46,711 bases of DNA from a virus. Positions 8,475 to 38,479 of this stretch are shown here, piece by piece; the first letter of the stretch is position 1, and the number at the start of each line of letters is the position of its first letter. A program made the position numbers and the translations under genes. The notes beneath the pieces were generated by a model. It was not told where the DNA came from. It was given only the letters and a program-made list of their open reading frames with translations, and did no database searches. The stretch spans positions 1-46,711 of IMG/VR virus record IMGVR_UViG_3300014325_000020; one strand, given 5' to 3'.

Positions 8475-9389
8475 TTACAACAGCACTTCTTCTCCCTGTC
8501 GTGCTGTATAGGTCGGTGTTCCTGAGTTATTCTGAGTCTCGATCTGAACCCAAAGACCAGCCGGGATCATCCCCGACAGGTTCGCGGTACCGACCATTTG
8601 CTGGCCTACGGTGACCGAAAGCGTAGTTGGCTGGCCTGCTGTGCTGCTGATAATCGTCTGTTGTCCTGTACTGCAGGCGCTATTGGTATACGTCCTCAGA
8701 AAGACGGTTCCCTGAGGTGTCCCGCCGAGTGTTACGGTAGTGGAGATATCTACCCCATAGGCGACCTGTGCGTCACGCGTCGAACTGATTTGGAAACAGG
8801 TTGCTACGGCGCGCGTCGGATATGAAAACGAGCGAGCGACAGCAGTTGGCAAGGTCGCCAGCGTACCGTCCCCGCGAACGTACTGCGCAGTCGTCCCGGT
8901 TGGCGTGTTGAACTTACCAGCAAGTCCAGCGGACAAAGCCGCAGAAGTCGCACCGTCGGTGATTCCATAACCGCTCAGCGTCGTGGGCTTGGACAGCAGA
9001 TCAGCGAACAGGCCCGAAGTCGCCACCGTCGCAAATGTTGGCTTGGTGTTCAGGTCGTTATAGCTCCCGCTGGTCGCAACAGTCGCCAGCGTCGGGCGGT
9101 TCAAAATCTGCGACAGGCCGCTATTCGAGGCCCAATCGGCATTCACTGGCGCTGAGGACATGGCGAGTTGCCCAGCCGAGAACGTGAGCCCCGTCCCTAG
9201 AGTCACATAACCTGGCAGTTGCGTTGTCGGATCGTAGAACCACAGCGATTTGGCCGTGGGGACAGTCATCACTCGCGTAACGTTCCCGGTATCAGCAGAA
9301 TTACGCTGCGTTAGAACCATGGAATACGGATCGGCAAATGCCGACGAAGCGGCAGCAATCGCCGCCATGGAAATCAGCAAGCGATTCAT
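8475..9389 (-). CDS. Tail fibre-like protein with signal peptide
   Basis: A 304-residue protein and the last gene of the late operon. The first 19 residues (MNRLLISMAAIAAASSAFA) are a textbook signal peptide with an A-x-A cleavage site, unusual for a virion protein. The middle carries classic short-fibre repeats: two SYNDLNTKPTF-like units and LSGYGITDGAT, as in many phage fibres. The end is a beta-rich head with a cysteine pair. It is coupled to the gene before it by a 4-nt overlap. It might attach to virions as an adhesin or act as a secreted, cell-surface protein. The fibre assignment is firm; localisation is inferred. Confidence 0.78.
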   Translation of the reverse strand: MNRLLISMAAIAAASSAFADPYSMVLTQRNSADTGNVTRVMTVPTAKSLWFYDPTTQLPGYVTLGTGLTFSAGQLAMSSAPVNADWASNSGLSQILNRPTLATVATSGSYNDLNTKPTFATVATSGLFADLLSKPTTLSGYGITDGATSAALSAGLAGKFNTPTGTTAQYVRGDGTLATLPTAVARSFSYPTRAVATCFQISSTRDAQVAYGVDISTTVTLGGTPQGTVFLRTYTNSACSTGQQTIISSTAGQPTTLSVTVGQQMVGTANLSGMIPAGLWVQIETQNNSGTPTYTARQGEEVLL

Positions 9390-9706
9390 GCGTCCCCCAC
9401 CCAGTGATTCGATCCAACATGAGTCACAGTGACAAACGAATTCGCCAGGAACGTCGTGGCGCCGTTGTCCACAGTCTTACCGGAATCCCACGTCAGATCG
9501 GTGATATTTTGATTGCACCAAAATCGAATCGTCTGACCATCAACCGAATCGTTGTCCGAAGGCAAATTGATTTGCAACGATGCCAGGGAAGACGTGGGAA
9601 GCAGCTTAATCAGCATGTCGCCACTATCCTGAGCCGGAACCGTGTATGTGGTTCCGGTGGTTGGAGTCCCGGTATAGATGCTTCTGGAAAGCGAGTACGT
9701 TGTCAC
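9386..9706 (-). CDS. Probable virion or fibre-associated protein
   Basis: A 106-residue, beta-rich protein with Thr/Ser/Gly-rich sequence (YTGTPTTGTTYTVPAQDSGD) ending in a short beta motif (THVGSNHWVGDA). Proteins with the phrase YTVPAQDSGD next to fibre genes are usually small structural or receptor-binding accessories. Its stop overlaps the ATG of the signal-peptide fibre downstream, implying matched expression. Confidence 0.65.
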   Translation of the reverse strand: MTTYSLSRSIYTGTPTTGTTYTVPAQDSGDMLIKLLPTSSLASLQINLPSDNDSVDGQTIRFWCNQNITDLTWDSGKTVDNGATTFLANSFVTVTHVGSNHWVGDA

Positions 9707-11585: not shown

Positions 11586-12902
11586 TTAGTCGTAAGACAT
11601 GCCTTTAGCGTAGCCCATTTTTTGCAGTTGCGGAAGCTGTTTCTCTAGCCTTTTACCGATGTCGTTGCGCAGCATGAGATTGCTTGGAACGCTGATCTTG
11701 TCGGCAACTGCGTAAGCAGCATCTGCCGACTCTTCTACTGTCGAGTCGCAACCGACCGCAACACCGATGTAGTTGCCAGCTGTGCACATCATCGGCTCTT
11801 CGATCACTTCGTCACCCTTCATCGTGGGCGCGCGACGGATGCAAACGTCCATGAGATGGAAGTTTTTGAGGACGGATTTGTTCAGTCCGTAGATCGGGGC
11901 ACCGGCATGCGTTTCTGGTGTGTCGTTCAAGTATGGGTAATCGCCGTGCGTGACGACGACCCCAGTAGCGATGTCCTCGCTGACCTTGAGCGTGTCTCGG
12001 CCTTCCAGCAGGTCAGCCATCCAGATAACGGGGTCGCCCTTGTGCAGTTGGGCCTGAATCACCGACAGGGGCCAACCAAAGCGGCACGTCCACTCCAAAG
12101 GCCACGGAATGCCCTTGTCGTCGATGATCGTGGCGATATCAACATATCCAACATACCCCAGTTGGAATAGAAAATCGGTACAAGGCTTCAAAACGTCGTC
12201 GAATAGCTGGGACTTCTTCACGTAGCGAACCACAGTCCCCTGCTCGCCAGTGGAAACGCCGTAGTCGCCCGGAAAGAGTTTTTTGAACTCCCAGTTTTCG
12301 CATAGCCACTCGCTCCAACCGTTAGGGCCGAACCACCCACCAACGGCCATTTCGGTGCCTTTGATGAGGTCTTGCAAAACGAACCCATTATTGATCGGCG
12401 GGTTCTTTTTCCACTGCTGGAGCTTGTAGACCAGATCGGCGGCGGACTTGCCAACGTAGCTGAATTCTTTGGGAGCTTCACCAATCGGCTTCGCCGCGTA
12501 CGCCTTCCCAGTCTTCTTAACGTAATCAATCGCTTTGTCGTAAGACGTGAACTTGACCGCCGGCATGATTTCCACGCCGCATGACTCCAATGCGGCCATG
12601 CCCTTGTCCCGGTCTAGCTCCAACTCGCCAGCCTGCTTGTTGCATCCGAAGATCGGATAACCTTGATTGAAATACGGTTGCAGTGCGTCGGCGTAATTGC
12701 AGTTATCCGAGGTCAGAATCAAATCCGCCCACTTCATCGAAGGCCGCCAATCAGCCACACGCGGCACGATCCCATCGCCCGCAGGGCGACGATTCCCGCC
12801 CTTGGTGTCCGGTAGCCAGTACCTCACATCGTGCCCAGCCTCCTGAGCACGGTATGCCACGTCCAGCGAGCACTTGCACGTATCAATGACGAGGACTTTC
12901 AT
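11586..12902 (-). CDS. PurD-like ATP-grasp ligase of unknown substrate
   Basis: A 438-residue enzyme, close to the length of phosphoribosylamine-glycine ligase (PurD). It has an N-terminal Rossmann-like unit (MKVLVIDTCKCSLDVAYRAQ), then ELDRDKGMAALESCGVE (the segment around K100 resembling the start of the ATP-grasp domain), KPIGEAPKE (K138), a glycine-rich loop, and PLEWTCRFGWP with E270 and R274 aligning with the Mg-binding LEfN-RfGDPE of PurD. The DPE is replaced by WPL, so the acceptor may differ. It acts in the cytoplasm, or is carried in the particle if it is a virion protein. It lies between the largest ejection protein (4-nt overlap) and a lysis gene, not with nucleotide genes. Product and role are unknown. 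Confidence 0.8.
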   Translation of the reverse strand: MKVLVIDTCKCSLDVAYRAQEAGHDVRYWLPDTKGGNRRPAGDGIVPRVADWRPSMKWADLILTSDNCNYADALQPYFNQGYPIFGCNKQAGELELDRDKGMAALESCGVEIMPAVKFTSYDKAIDYVKKTGKAYAAKPIGEAPKEFSYVGKSAADLVYKLQQWKKNPPINNGFVLQDLIKGTEMAVGGWFGPNGWSEWLCENWEFKKLFPGDYGVSTGEQGTVVRYVKKSQLFDDVLKPCTDFLFQLGYVGYVDIATIIDDKGIPWPLEWTCRFGWPLSVIQAQLHKGDPVIWMADLLEGRDTLKVSEDIATGVVVTHGDYPYLNDTPETHAGAPIYGLNKSVLKNFHLMDVCIRRAPTMKGDEVIEEPMMCTAGNYIGVAVGCDSTVEESADAAYAVADKISVPSNLMLRNDIGKRLEKQLPQLQKMGYAKGMSYD

Positions 12903-20883: not shown

Positions 20884-22698
20884 TCAAGTTCCTGTTTCGG
20901 CGTAAAAGTCAAAATTCACCGTGGCTGCCGCAGTAGGAACGGAAACGCAAATAGTCCCGTTCAAAACAACGCCAGCTTGACTCGTTGCTCCACCTGGTGC
21001 CGTTCCAAATCCACCAGCACTCGTCAGTAATCCTGGGATAGCTCGGCTCGGAGTTTGCCAAATCAGCATTTTGTCCAAGAATGTGCTGCCCGATCCAGTG
21101 AATTGATAATCAATCGCATAAATGGCTTCTTCTGCTGCGGAATAATTCACGCTGCCAGAGGCTTGCGTATTACCTTTGGTGATAACTCGCCAAACCGTAG
21201 ATGCCCCCCAATAGGGTAGAACTATTTGCTGCACAGTCCCGCTTGCGGAATAAAATCCAACTCCAGTAACTCCCTTAATACTTATCTTTGGAACATCAGT
21301 ATTGTTGAAAACAAAACGCGTAATCGGCGTATTGATAATGGCGCCGCCGTTCAATTTCAACTGTGTCAAGCCTGTCGCCACGGTAAACATCGCGCCATAC
21401 GTCGTTGAATTCCACGAGCCACCGAGTAGATTCCTATATTGCGTGTTCTCGAAATCGTAAGTGCTCGTCCCACTCGCCGGCATCGACAGCACCGACGCCG
21501 TCGTGCTAGACGTGTAGCCACTCGTGGTCGGCGCGCCGTCGAAGACCGTGCCATTGAACATCAACACGTTGTTTGTGCCGGTGTTGTGATTGATGGCGGG
21601 GCCAGCCATGTTACGGAAACTGCCACCGTTCCACTGTGCATCGCTGTTGTTGGCTTGCCAATTAACGAATCCGGTGAACGTCGAATACTGTGTATTCATC
21701 GTGAAGTTCACGTTCGAGTGATTCAGGTTGTGAAGCGCAGTTCCCTGCATCAACTCGGCGGCGAATTGCGCGTATTCGATGATGCCATTTGAAATCGCGA
21801 TGTCGTGCGACGACCCGGAAAACGAAATTCCGTAATTCGGAAGGTACAAATCGAAGTTTGTGATCTGGATGTTCTGCGCGCCGTTCAGTACGATGGCGGA
21901 CAAAGATTGATCGATTTGGATTCCGGAGATGACACCATCCGCGCCCGTGACATTGATCCCGATCCCGGGGAACGTCAAGAACATATCGGAGATTTCGAAA
22001 CCCGCCGCGCTCGTCGTGATGACCGCCGCCGAACCGCCGCCGCCAGAAGTCCAGAGATTTTGAATCTTGACCGGCGAGCCACCAGCATCCGGGCCGCTGG
22101 AACTGTTGCCGAGAACGAAGTTGTTCGTCGATGCAGGCGTGCCTACTAGATTAATGAACGTACCCCACCCGACACCGCGCAACGTTTCACCCTTGCGCAC
22201 ATACACCGTGCCGTTGATGAGATATCCGGGTGGCGAATTCGGCACTTCGATGGTGTATTGCAGCGCTGCTGAGAATGTCGCTGTCGATTGAGTCGCTGCA
22301 TTGAACGCTGCCGTATCGTCATGCGTGTTGTCGCCGTAGGCGCCGCACTGCTTTACGTTCACGGTGTTGGTGTAGTTCAACCCCCAAACCGCGCCGTCGC
22401 TGGCGATGATGGTCAAGCAACCGTCGTCGGTGAAACCCGCCGAGGTCGTCGACTTGATGTAGTAATTCGCACCACCACCGTCGCCATTTGTTCGATAGCC
22501 CAATGTCTGGACATTATTTCCAAACAGATGATTGAAATTTCTTAGGGCGGCAACGTTCAGGACGTTTTTTGTCAGCGTGGCTGAACCCAATCCCGTGACT
22601 GTTCCGTTAATCGCTAGATTATTTACGGTGAACGTCTGTGCACTCGCAAACGAACTAATCGCGATAAGCAAAAGGAAAAGGTACTTTTTGAAATTCAT
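20884..22698 (-). CDS. Beta-helix tailspike with signal peptide
   Basis: A 604-residue protein. Residues 1-20 (MNFKKYLFLLLIAISSFASA) form a clear Sec signal peptide. Residues 114-135 (KQCGAYGDNTHDDTAAFNAA) are the hallmark of pectate-lyase-fold tailspikes (GA-GD-x-DDT-A). The following 300 residues have the Asn/Gly/Ile ladder of a right-handed beta-helix. The end is a small beta-sandwich-like domain. Such spikes bind or cleave surface polysaccharide. The signal peptide is not expected on a particle component and raises the possibility of export from the infected cell. It overlaps the preceding gene by four bases. Confidence 0.82.
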   Translation of the reverse strand: MNFKKYLFLLLIAISSFASAQTFTVNNLAINGTVTGLGSATLTKNVLNVAALRNFNHLFGNNVQTLGYRTNGDGGGANYYIKSTTSAGFTDDGCLTIIASDGAVWGLNYTNTVNVKQCGAYGDNTHDDTAAFNAATQSTATFSAALQYTIEVPNSPPGYLINGTVYVRKGETLRGVGWGTFINLVGTPASTNNFVLGNSSSGPDAGGSPVKIQNLWTSGGGGSAAVITTSAAGFEISDMFLTFPGIGINVTGADGVISGIQIDQSLSAIVLNGAQNIQITNFDLYLPNYGISFSGSSHDIAISNGIIEYAQFAAELMQGTALHNLNHSNVNFTMNTQYSTFTGFVNWQANNSDAQWNGGSFRNMAGPAINHNTGTNNVLMFNGTVFDGAPTTSGYTSSTTASVLSMPASGTSTYDFENTQYRNLLGGSWNSTTYGAMFTVATGLTQLKLNGGAIINTPITRFVFNNTDVPKISIKGVTGVGFYSASGTVQQIVLPYWGASTVWRVITKGNTQASGSVNYSAAEEAIYAIDYQFTGSGSTFLDKMLIWQTPSRAIPGLLTSAGGFGTAPGGATSQAGVVLNGTICVSVPTAAATVNFDFYAETGT

Positions 22699-23018
22699 AC
22701 TGCGACTCCTGCCGCGTTAATCCAAATAGCTGGCGAAACCTGAGTGCACCAGATCGGCTGACCGAGCGTTGTGTCTACGTAAAACTGATATAGCTTCGGA
22801 ACGGCAGGTCTGTTAGCAGTCGTTCCGCCACTTGGTGCTGGAGATGCCTGAATTGCAGCACCAATAGACCCAGCAGCGTATGGAACTGCTGGGCCAAAAC
22901 CAATGCAGCCAGCGCCCTTGGTGGCTGTCGATTGATCCCCGAGAATGTCATCGAAAACCTGTAGCGGCTCAATAGGAGCAGCCAAGTTTCCAAAATTTGA
23001 CAGTCCAAGCGTACTCAT
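22695..23018 (-). CDS. Small virion or appendage protein
   Basis: A 107-residue protein with an N-terminal part rich in Gly/Ala/Pro (CIGFGPAVPYAAGSIGAAIQASP) and a C-terminal strand set (YQFYVDTTLGQPIWCTQVSP). The last motif, with YvDttlgqPiWc, is often seen at the ends of phage structural proteins of the receptor-binding region. It lies between two tailspike genes. The role is inferred from position. Confidence 0.66.
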   Translation of the reverse strand: MSTLGLSNFGNLAAPIEPLQVFDDILGDQSTATKGAGCIGFGPAVPYAAGSIGAAIQASPAPSGGTTANRPAVPKLYQFYVDTTLGQPIWCTQVSPAIWINAAGVAV

Positions 23019-23344: not shown

Positions 23345-26300
23345 TTAAAGCGCCGTGAACGCGATGCTTGCAATACCCGGAACTGTACCTTTGTTTGGTG
23401 TGCTTGACGTGAATTTAACCGCGAGATTATGAGTCCCGCTCGGCATATCGAACGTTGGCAAACCGTTCATATTGAACATGGTGACACTACTGGCAACAGT
23501 GGCCCCTGCGCTACCAGCACCGTTAGCGGGAAGCGTCGCAGTACCGATCTGTACGTTATCCAGATAGACCATTGCGACGGTACCGGCGGTGCTGTCGGAA
23601 CCAGAAAGCGTCGCGCTGTAGCGTCGTGAACGGTTGAAAACTACGGCCCAATTTGCGTTCCGAGCCCCCGTGTTATCCACCCAATAACACATCCCGTTCG
23701 TCGTGTTGTACGTGATTGAGGTTCCGTTGGCATCGGTACCAGCCATGACGGACTGATCTGCGTTGACGTTCCCGACGCCCGACAGCTTGACCCCGTAGAC
23801 GGTCGGCGGCGCGCCGGCTGATGGGCTGAATAGGTTCTGGTAAAACCGTTGCTCAGAACGATAGGCCAGCAGTGCAGCGACCTTAGGTGATGTCGTGTCC
23901 GTCCACGAAGACATCCAGTTCCACGAACCCTGTGCCACGTTCGTGATGACGCCAGGCACGACACTGAAGCAGTATGCCTCTTGGCCTCCACAGCCATACC
24001 ACAGTTCAAGCAGCTTCTGAATCACCGTGCTCAGGAGCGAGTTCGAGCTGATACTGATTTGTTGATTCGGGATCGACTGAATGTCAATACTGATTTCGTA
24101 GGCCATCATTCGAACGCCGTATTTCCTCGTGAAATACGCATGGTTACGAATTGCCACCTCGATCCACGGCAAAAATCCTGAAATCATGCAGTTGAGAATC
24201 GAGGTCGAATCGCCGTCTGTGAACACGATACTCGGCGGTGCTGTCGTGGTTGTCGCCGTTGCGGTCACGTTTGTGAGAACCGTACCAGCGATATTCAAGG
24301 TCGTACCGCTGGAGCCGGCAGCCACCGCAGTCGCCAGCGTTGCGCCACTGGCCCCCACACCGCTGACGTTGATGGAGTCGCCAACCACCGCCGTGGATGC
24401 CCAAGGCACGCCCAGAATCTGATTCGGTGCACCAGTGGATGCGCTCGAATACCGGCTCTGAGCCTTGACGTAGGGCGCCACAGCCGTCGCATACAGCCAC
24501 GTGTTGATATTCGTCCCAGGAACCGTAGCGTTCGCTATGTAAGTAGCGTATGCGTAATGAACAGGCTCGAACTGAGCCGAAGTTTCGTTAACCGTGCCGC
24601 TGGTTTGCAGGTTCAAAACGAAGCGGTCTTGCGTGCGGCCGGCAGTCTGGAACTGCGTCCAGATTTGGTAGGCCCGACGAACGTACCACTTGTAAGGCAA
24701 TTGGTTGATATCCGTGATGCCGTCGCCGATCAGCGTTGATGACGGATTGAAGTACGCCTGCCACGTGTCGGTCAGGGACATCGTTCCGTTGCCTTGAGAG
24801 GCATAGGTGAACGTATTCCCGACAACTGACAGCACAGTTGCGAGGTGAGAAATGCTGTACGCTACTCCGCCTGCGTCTTTTGACCAGGCTGCAGTAATCG
24901 GGTTGTTGACGAAGAATTGCGCCCCGTTCGTGATGAACGATGGCATGGAGGTTAGCGTTACGGTGGTGGTCGTTCCGTTGCCAGTGATCGACGAAACGAG
25001 TTGAACGAAGGATGATCCCTTGTTCGAGCAGAGACACTGCAGTTCCTGCTGCGCCATCGCCGAGTAAATCGGATAGATCGTCGATCCCGTATTCCATGGC
25101 TCGTTTCCGATTTCGATGTATAGCGGAACGCCAGTCGTCAGAATAGAGGTCAGTTTACCGGCCGCGTTGAACGCATAGTTGTCGGTCACGTAGGGGTTCA
25201 GGTTGAACCACATGCTAACGATCTTGGAGCTAGGGTAGTTAGCTACCGAGTTGATAAACCGAATCTGACGCTCAATCGCATACGGCCAACCCGGGCCAGT
25301 CGTTCCGTAATCGACGATCCGGTTTGCCCACGTAATGTCGTGGTGCTGGACGACGCCCGTTCCAGTCGGAACTCCGGTCGCAGTGAAAACTGTTCCCTGT
25401 CGGTTATCCGCAGCACCCCACAGCGTGTAGTCGGTTGTTCCCTGAGAATAGATGACCGCATCTTGTCCCACCAGCAACGATGTCGCATTGATGTTCGGAG
25501 GAATGGAGTTGTTCAAGTCCATCATCCGAATCGAGTCGTGCTGCGACATGGATGCGAGCATGTCCTGCGCGAACTCCGGGCCGTTCCAGGTCGGCGTTAC
25601 ACCATCGCGCGGAATATCCACGTATGCGACGCCGCCCGTGAACTTGATTTGAACGTTCTGGTTCGCTGTCGTCACCATCGTGAACTTGATGGTGATGTTG
25701 TCCGGCTGAAGTGTTAGCCCGCTGACGGTGCAGCCTGCCAACGCGGAAACCGTAGGGACTGTTCCCGGCGTCCATCCAGCATTTGCCGATAGGAGCCGAT
25801 ACGAGCAGTTATATGTCCCGGCGGCCAATTGGCCGTCATTCGATGCCCCCGAGAGCGGCTTCGTGACGAAAAACTGGAACGCTACCGTGGGCCAGCCAGT
25901 TGCGCCGATATTGGCTGCTGGAATGACATTGCTGCTAAGGTCGGTCGGAATCGTTCCGCCCTGCGCCGCGTTGTTGATGAAATAGCCCGGCGTATAGCTG
26001 AACGGATCGGTGGTATTCGAGCCAAGTAACCCGTTGTTATAGGCTGTCTGGACAGCGATAACCGAGGTAGGCGTCGAATTGGATGTAACTGATCCAACCG
26101 CATTCGTCAGTGTCTGAGACGCCAAGACGGCCTTGCCAACATCACCAATGACGGTCGTGTACCCATTGCTCTGGGTGATTCCCCCGAGAGTCATTGTCAG
26201 CGCACCAGTAGGGATCGGAAACCCAGTGGCCGTCATCGGAAAACTCTCTAGCGAGTCGCCTACTTGAATCTCCGGGACAACATAGACCGGTTGCAAAATT

Positions 26301-26368
26301 GTCGGCGCAGCGTATACCGGGATATTGGCGAGCAGCTTCGCTAGTTGGAAACCGTTGATCTGAGCCAT
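23345..26368 (-). CDS. Large tailspike with glycoside-hydrolase-like centre
   Basis: A 1007-residue protein. The N-terminal 270 residues are beta-rich and probably bind the virion. Residues about 270-450 and 540-770 look like a (beta/alpha)-barrel of clan GH-A: IEIGNEPWN carries the likely acid/base E423, and RMMAYEISID offers a nucleophile near E758. Two inserted Gly/Thr-rich beta domains interrupt it at roughly 455-535 and 640-715. The last 150 residues (AVVFNRSRRYSATLSGSD...) resemble a carbohydrate-binding or Ig-like domain. It is probably a depolymerase acting on host capsule or O-antigen. Substrate and exact GH family cannot be told by eye. There is no signal peptide, unlike the beta-helix spike. 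Confidence 0.75.
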   Translation of the reverse strand: MAQINGFQLAKLLANIPVYAAPTILQPVYVVPEIQVGDSLESFPMTATGFPIPTGALTMTLGGITQSNGYTTVIGDVGKAVLASQTLTNAVGSVTSNSTPTSVIAVQTAYNNGLLGSNTTDPFSYTPGYFINNAAQGGTIPTDLSSNVIPAANIGATGWPTVAFQFFVTKPLSGASNDGQLAAGTYNCSYRLLSANAGWTPGTVPTVSALAGCTVSGLTLQPDNITIKFTMVTTANQNVQIKFTGGVAYVDIPRDGVTPTWNGPEFAQDMLASMSQHDSIRMMDLNNSIPPNINATSLLVGQDAVIYSQGTTDYTLWGAADNRQGTVFTATGVPTGTGVVQHHDITWANRIVDYGTTGPGWPYAIERQIRFINSVANYPSSKIVSMWFNLNPYVTDNYAFNAAGKLTSILTTGVPLYIEIGNEPWNTGSTIYPIYSAMAQQELQCLCSNKGSSFVQLVSSITGNGTTTTVTLTSMPSFITNGAQFFVNNPITAAWSKDAGGVAYSISHLATVLSVVGNTFTYASQGNGTMSLTDTWQAYFNPSSTLIGDGITDINQLPYKWYVRRAYQIWTQFQTAGRTQDRFVLNLQTSGTVNETSAQFEPVHYAYATYIANATVPGTNINTWLYATAVAPYVKAQSRYSSASTGAPNQILGVPWASTAVVGDSINVSGVGASGATLATAVAAGSSGTTLNIAGTVLTNVTATATTTTAPPSIVFTDGDSTSILNCMISGFLPWIEVAIRNHAYFTRKYGVRMMAYEISIDIQSIPNQQISISSNSLLSTVIQKLLELWYGCGGQEAYCFSVVPGVITNVAQGSWNWMSSWTDTTSPKVAALLAYRSEQRFYQNLFSPSAGAPPTVYGVKLSGVGNVNADQSVMAGTDANGTSITYNTTNGMCYWVDNTGARNANWAVVFNRSRRYSATLSGSDSTAGTVAMVYLDNVQIGTATLPANGAGSAGATVASSVTMFNMNGLPTFDMPSGTHNLAVKFTSSTPNKGTVPGIASIAFTAL

Positions 26369-38404: not shown

Positions 38405-38479
38405 TGGAGCGGCCTGCGAGGATCGAACTCGCGTAATCTGCTTGGAAGGCAGAAGCCTGAGCCACTCGGCCAAGGCCGC
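38405..38479 (-). tRNA. tRNA-Gly (anticodon UCC)
   Basis: It folds as a complete cloverleaf on the minus strand: acceptor GCGGCCT/AGGCCGC, a short D-arm with GG in the loop, anticodon stem TCTGC/GCAGA with loop CTTCCAA (anticodon TCC), a 4-nt variable loop, and T-arm GCGAG-TTCGATC-CTCGC. A CCA tail is encoded (38405-38407). It reads GGA and GGG glycine codons. Its gene is followed by an intrinsic terminator. The glycine-rich late virion proteins may benefit; that is inference. Confidence 0.95.

What the first reader, a model, noticed from the sequence alone, without database searches (positions are those of the whole stretch)
20884..22698. Beta-helix tailspike carries a bacterial signal peptide
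The first 20 residues are an ideal Sec signal with A-S-A before the mature beta-helix protein. Phage tailspikes assemble in the cytoplasm, so export makes no sense for the particle unless the start is different or the signal is used otherwise. It may be released as a free depolymerase or displayed on the dying cell, where it could clear capsule or block superinfection.
Basis: partly seen in the sequence, partly recalled or inferred. Interest (0 to 1): 0.75.

Follow-up and report, generated by a model that had tools for sequence, protein, structure and literature searches.

The report
Phage tailspike halves with export signals
This phage makes the receptor-binding part of its tailspike as a separate protein carrying a bacterial export signal, and dozens of other environmental phages do the same, which suggests that some phages send part of their tail out of the cytoplasm and may finish the particle outside it.

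Summary
The 604-aa spike starts MNFKKYLFLLLIAISSFASA|QTFTVNNLAINGT behind a good ribosome site and an ATGA overlap with the upstream gene. It is not an oddity. An IMG/VR scan for AQTFxVxNLx[V/I]xG, blind to the rest of the signal, gave 37 contigs; with the window, all 38 have a Sec-type signal directly before the Q (28 distinct signals). In 23 of 38 the upstream gene ends in the same ~45-aa cap domain. In at least three lineages that upstream gene is the virion-binding N-terminus of a conventional tailspike, cut off from its body: the window's matches the N-terminus of a close relative's ordinary 688-aa spike. That 688-aa spike shares 51% identity over 600 aa with an exported spike in another phage. 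So the same body exists on a virion anchor or on an export signal. A second window gene (8475-9389) belongs to another such class (9 of 9 with signals), which includes cultured phages. Best reading: a split tailspike, with the anchor made in the cytoplasm and the body exported by Sec; docking at or after lysis is the most likely use, unproven. Free depolymerase or receptor mask is the main rival.

The parts
20884..22698 (-). Exported spike body, 604 aa (P0001)
   Evidence: family profile matches PDB tailspike 8oq1, phi29 preneck appendage and pectin-lyase folds
22639..22698 (-). Sec-type signal peptide, residues 1-20 (MNFKKYLFLLLIAISSFASA)
   Evidence: sequence; conserved in 38/38 loci with the same mature N-terminus
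22567..22638 (-). QTF module (QTFTVNNLAINGTVTGLGSATLTK), first segment of the mature protein
   Evidence: shared with unrelated fibre bodies in many phages
20884..22566 (-). Variable body: N-terminal beta domain (GY..GDGGG) plus right-handed beta-helix
   Evidence: 30% identity over 272 aa to the L102 spike; Vibrio MGD2 gp5 homology over residues 146-551; PF13229/PF12708 in family members
22695..23018 (-). Upstream 107-aa gene: virion-anchor stub plus cap, without signal peptide
   Evidence: residues 1-63 are 54% identical to the N-terminus of the conventional 688-aa spike of L102; cap matches phrog_20787 virion structural protein
22698..22829 (-). Cap domain (GGTTANRPAVPKLYQFYVDTTLGQPIWCTQVSPAIWINAAGVAV)
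   Evidence: cap-type ending precedes 23 of 38 exported spikes; similar domain in CBA120 tailspike and YuA structural proteins
22706..22710 (-). Shine-Dalgarno AGGAG for the spike, inside the cap coding sequence
   Evidence: sequence
8475..9389 (-). Second fibre-like protein with a signal peptide, 304 aa (P0002: MNRLLISMAAIAAASSAFA|DPYSMVLTQRNSADT)
   Evidence: signal in all 9 family members with the QRNxxDT module, including Pseudomonas phages AF, AH02 and Orisa03
9386..9706 (-). Small beta protein coupled (ATGA) to the second exported fibre

Best explanation
The gene encodes the receptor-binding body of a split tailspike. SHOWN by sequence: the body carries a canonical Sec/signal-peptidase-I signal that is conserved across its class, and the virion-anchoring N-terminus that relatives fuse to the same kind of body is encoded separately by the upstream, translationally coupled gene. 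INFERRED: the anchor stub folds in the cytoplasm and is built into the tail, while the body is exported by Sec, cleaved at A20|Q21 and trimerises in the periplasm. At lysis both are released together, and the QTF module of the body docks on the cap of the virion anchor, completing the particle outside the cytoplasm. Excess free body may also cleave or mask surface glycans.
For: Signal in 38/38 loci with the same mature N-terminus, 28 distinct signals, all A|Q, against about 5% background. Cap-ending gene immediately upstream in 23/38, nearly always with ATGA overlap; the converse search (cap end plus ATGA) gave an exported protein in 16/18. The anchor is detached from a conventional spike in three lineages: window 107-aa vs L102 spike, 54% over 63 aa; L255 stub vs PBR31 tailspike, 63% over 199 aa; L259 stub vs BcepC6B gp18, 36% over 261 aa, plus tail-protein PHROGs. 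The same body occurs in both formats: L102 anchored spike vs L292 exported spike, 51% identity over 600 aa. Conventional fibres and spikes from phage records lack the signal.
Against: No proteomic or biochemical data: neither export, cleavage nor docking is shown. The cap also ends virion proteins that have no exported partner (L250, L252; YuA and CBA120 hits), so it is not a dedicated dock. 15 of 38 exported spikes have no cap gene next to them. Other tail genes in the window could supply receptor binding. The structure model was too poor to test docking.
Confidence: 0.45

Rival explanations
1. The body is exported and never joins the virion. It is freed at lysis as a soluble depolymerase, or binds surface glycan or nascent receptors so that progeny are not lost on debris or the dying cell is not reinfected. 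The upstream stub is an independent short virion fibre.
For: Signal conserved in all members. The cap is also found on virion proteins with no exported partner. Exported fibres often lie next to lysis genes (BcepC6B gp19, PBR31 gp35, L292, window P0002). From general knowledge, T5 Llp and phage Cor proteins are exported receptor blockers.
Against: It leaves anchors of known spikes without a body in at least three lineages, and a body interchangeable with an anchored spike. No lipobox or membrane anchor for display. Catalytic activity not tested.
Confidence: 0.32
2. The N-terminus looks like a signal but is not used for export. The hydrophobic segment holds the body to the cap or tail in the cytoplasm, so the protein is an ordinary virion component.
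For: Tailed phages assemble in the cytoplasm (established knowledge); the gene lies inside the tail gene cluster.
Against: 28 different sequences keep the n/h/c signal layout, with Ala always directly before Q and a small residue usual at -3. That conserves a protease site, not an interface. Three unrelated mature N-termini are each preceded by such a signal.
Confidence: 0.12
3. A one-off: wrong start codon, host gene contamination, or a chance hydrophobic N-terminus.
For: Phage starts are often misassigned; no Pfam or PHROG family for the protein itself.
Against: Ribosome site and ATGA coupling; conserved in dozens of contigs, with structural phage genes on both sides in the window.
Confidence: 0.02

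Closest known systems
Beta-helix tailspikes of podoviruses (P22 gp9, Sf6; here PBR31 gp34, BcepC6B gp18, L102 spike)
   Same: Beta-helix body, place in the tail gene cluster; the upstream stubs are homologous to the N-terminal virion-binding domains of PBR31 gp34, BcepC6B gp18 and the L102 spike.
   Different: Those are one polypeptide without a signal peptide; here anchor and body are two genes and the body is addressed to the Sec pathway.
BcepC6B gp19, PBR31 gp35 (SP|TLxPIQLLNPAGSTSGQAI class) and Pseudomonas AF gp25, AH02 gp17, Orisa03 gp38 (SP|..QRNxxDT class)
   Same: Fibre-like proteins of cultured phages with an N-terminal signal in front of a short conserved module, directly behind a structural gene.
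   Different: Different mature N-terminal module and body; annotated only as tail fibre, structural or hypothetical protein, with no signal noted in the records seen.
Exported receptor-blocking proteins (T5 Llp, Cor of lambdoid phages; from general knowledge)
   Same: Phage proteins exported by the infected cell that could affect re-adsorption.
   Different: As recalled, Llp is a small lipoprotein; here the residue after cleavage is Gln, with no lipobox, and the protein is a large beta-helix spike.
Sec-exported phage endolysins (signal-peptide and SAR types; e.g. PMC7143992, PMC7696170)
   Same: Phage late proteins that use the host Sec system.
   Different: They are lysis enzymes, not tail components.
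Filamentous phage pIII/pVIII (general knowledge)
   Same: Virion proteins with signal peptides, assembled outside the cytoplasm.
   Different: Unrelated proteins and assembly pathway; no tailed-phage equivalent was found in the papers searched.

Membership tests
Sec/signal-peptidase-I exported protein | Positive n-region, hydrophobic h-region, A-x-A type cleavage site at a real start codon | tested here: met
Sec/signal-peptidase-I exported protein | Signal conserved among homologues as a property, not as a fixed sequence | tested here: met
   38/38 loci, 28 distinct signals
Sec/signal-peptidase-I exported protein | Actual export and cleavage | not testable with these tools
   needs a fusion or N-terminal peptide mapping
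Beta-helix tailspike | Right-handed beta-helix body | tested here: met
   family level only: PF13229/PF12708 in members; profile matches to 8oq1, 7chu and 3gq7. Own AlphaFold model mean pLDDT 45
Beta-helix tailspike | N-terminal virion-binding domain in the same polypeptide | tested here: not met
   domain is in the separate upstream gene
Beta-helix tailspike | Present in virions as a trimer | not testable with these tools
   no virion of this phage exists in culture as far as known here
Secreted free depolymerase | Signal peptide on a polysaccharide-lyase-like fold | tested here: met
Secreted free depolymerase | Catalytic activity or active-site residues | not tested
   no close characterised homologue
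Llp/Cor-type lipoprotein receptor blocker | Lipobox with Cys at +1 | tested here: not met
   +1 is Gln in all 28 signals
SAR (signal-anchor) protein | Uncleaved anchor, no signal-peptidase site | tested here: not met
   small residues at -3 and Ala at -1

The most novel reading that the evidence does not exclude
Some tailed phages complete their particles outside the cytoplasm: a virion leaves assembly with bare spike anchors, and receptor-binding spike bodies stored in the periplasm dock onto them at lysis. Several unrelated phage lineages have converged on this by splitting the tailspike gene and adding a Sec signal to the body.
Probability: 0.4. Interest if true: 0.92.

Novelty: new variant of a known kind. 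Interest (0 to 1): 0.78.

Why it matters
All tailed phages are taught to assemble in the cytoplasm. A conserved class of spike bodies addressed to the Sec pathway means either that some virions are finished outside it, or that phages secrete their receptor-binding proteins for another purpose. Both change how host range, free depolymerases and receptor competition are read from phage genomes. It also warns annotators: signal-bearing beta-helix genes in soil viromes may be spikes, not auxiliary pectate lyases. The question is directly testable, because two related classes occur in cultured phages (Pseudomonas phage AF, BcepC6B, PBR31).

Tried and rejected
Wrong start codon: rejected (ribosome site, ATGA overlap, no other nearby in-frame ATG). 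Frameshift fusion of the 107-aa gene with the spike: no slippery site seen in the overlap, and the cap ends in the same conserved way in all copies; termination-reinitiation is the simpler reading. Parity of cysteine counts as a sign of periplasmic folding: class A shows none. A cysteine pair in the GY..GDGGG domain occurs in three exported bodies and not in L102 or VSW-3, suggestive only; the window spike lacks that pair. AlphaFold model too poor for a fold search, so none was run. Cultured-phage search for the window's own class gave no full module match. Cap-end DNA pattern in 399 genomes drawn from the order of a Nitrotoga genome found nothing (exact pattern, weak test). Paper searches for signal peptides on tail fibres or spikes found no description (open-access texts only). 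No DNA-level relative among 50,697 phage records.

Full report
What is there. The window is a 46,711-base virus record whose minus strand carries a head-tail gene cluster: terminase large subunit, portal, major head protein and head-closure-like proteins. The finding lies on the minus strand, 22698 down to 20884. Its first residues are MNFKKYLFLLLIAISSFASA|QTFTVNNLAINGTVTG. The start is secure: AGGAG at 22706-22710, 7 nt before the ATG, which overlaps the stop of the preceding 107-aa gene as ATGA.

The signal is a conserved class feature. The motif QTFTVNNL was first searched as DNA in viral and genome contigs and gave one more phage protein, L016 (MKRIFLIALALISGICSA|QTFTVNNLAVNG). A broader motif added L246. 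Two wider scans of IMG/VR followed. One asked for the end of the upstream gene plus the ATGA overlap: 16 of 18 contigs continue with a signal peptide, 15 of them followed by a QTF-type module. The other asked for Ala-Gln-Thr-Phe-x-Val-x-Asn/Asp-Leu-x-Val/Ile-x-Gly, blind to everything before the Ala: 37 contigs, and with the window 38 of 38 have a signal ending exactly at that Ala. There are 28 distinct signals, net charge +1 or +2 in the first seven residues, with an acidic residue in one only. The pattern did require the Ala, which is a small bias; the background rate of my rule is 70 of 1305 ORFs. Near-identical contigs are among the 38, so 28 is the better count.

It is one of at least three such classes. 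A second gene of the window, P0002 (8475-9389, minus), starts MNRLLISMAAIAAASSAFA|DPYSMVLTQRNSADT. Nine of nine proteins with this QRNxxDT module carry a signal, among them Pseudomonas phages AF, AH02 and Orisa03. A third class (SP|TLxPIQLLNPAGSTSGQAI) includes BcepC6B gp19 and PBR31 gp35. Most of these genes overlap or directly follow a structural gene. Ordinary fibres used as controls have no such signal: BcepMigl gp58-61, Bcep176 gp66, Vibrio MGD2 gp5, VSW-3, ZF14_PE001, the L102 spike. One BcepMigl fibre (gp62) trips the rule weakly (score 2.84), on an N-terminus shared with its non-signal neighbour gp61.

The spike is split. In the close relative L102 (tail genes 72-91% identical) the window's 107-aa gene and spike are replaced by one 688-aa spike without signal, whose first 63 residues match those of the 107-aa protein at 54% identity. 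In L255 the upstream gene is the virion-binding N-terminus of the PBR31 tailspike (63% identity over 199 aa). In L259 it is that of BcepC6B gp18 (36% over 261 aa; tail-protein PHROGs). In each case the anchor ends in the same cap...RPxxPxLYQxYFDTTLGxPIWCxQxSPxxWVNAAGVxV, and the next gene is an exported body. A cap-ending gene directly precedes 23 of the 38. The cap itself is a known ending of virion proteins (phrog_20787; CBA120 and YuA proteins).

The bodies are true tailspike bodies. The L102 anchored spike and the L292 exported spike share 51% identity over 600 aa up to the last residue. P0001 shares 30% over 272 aa with the L102 spike. The family profile matches a solved tailspike (8oq1), the phi29 preneck appendage and pectin-lyase folds. 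So the same body occurs either on a virion anchor or on an export signal.

Mechanism. That the protein is addressed to Sec is strongly supported; actual export is inferred (I put it near 0.85). What it does afterwards is open. Docking onto the virion anchor at lysis explains why anchors and bodies are separated yet kept together in different lineages. It has a precedent in kind, since P22 tailspikes attach to finished particles in vitro (general knowledge). A free depolymerase or receptor mask explains the signal and the frequent nearness to lysis genes, but not the bodiless anchors. A purely cytoplasmic role of the hydrophobic N-terminus is unlikely, given the conserved cleavage site.

Limits. 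No SignalP, no complex prediction, a poor monomer model, no proteomics, and only open-access literature. Searches there found no description of signal-bearing tail spikes. The PBR31 paper notes a signal peptide on another protein (gp40) but does not mention gp35 (PMC10975493). The JC1 virion proteome (PMC9144972) concerns a Bcep22-like phage; in its relative BcepMigl the fibres I checked show no convincing signal.

Noticed in passing
window 8475-9389, minus: A second exported fibre-like protein, after the lysis genes; it and its small partner gene (9386-9706) are absent from the close relative L102, which also has an ordinary unsplit spike.
   Followed up: partly
window 23345-26368, minus: A 1007-aa protein in the tail cluster contains YIEIGNEPWN, like the acid/base motif of clan-A glycoside hydrolases; no Pfam, PHROG or PDB match.
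   Followed up: partly
window 11586-12902, minus: A weak match to ATP-grasp/GARS domains in a 438-aa gene kept next to the lysis genes in relatives (73% identity in L102).
   Followed up: no
window 22698-22720: The conserved end of the cap (AAGVxV) doubles as the Shine-Dalgarno of the exported spike, which may explain part of its conservation.
   Followed up: partly
L292 C68/C92, L285 C66/C90, L274 C112/C137: Three exported bodies have a cysteine pair in the GY..GDGGG domain that the non-exported homologues L102 and VSW-3 lack, as expected if they fold in an oxidising compartment.
   Followed up: partly
L112 62-1684: A distant relative of the window has another beta-helix-like protein with a signal (MKKLFALCLLALALPSWA) and 14 mature cysteines just upstream of the tail genes.
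   Followed up: no
window 38405-38479, minus: tRNA-Gly (tcc) next to the terminase genes.
   Followed up: no
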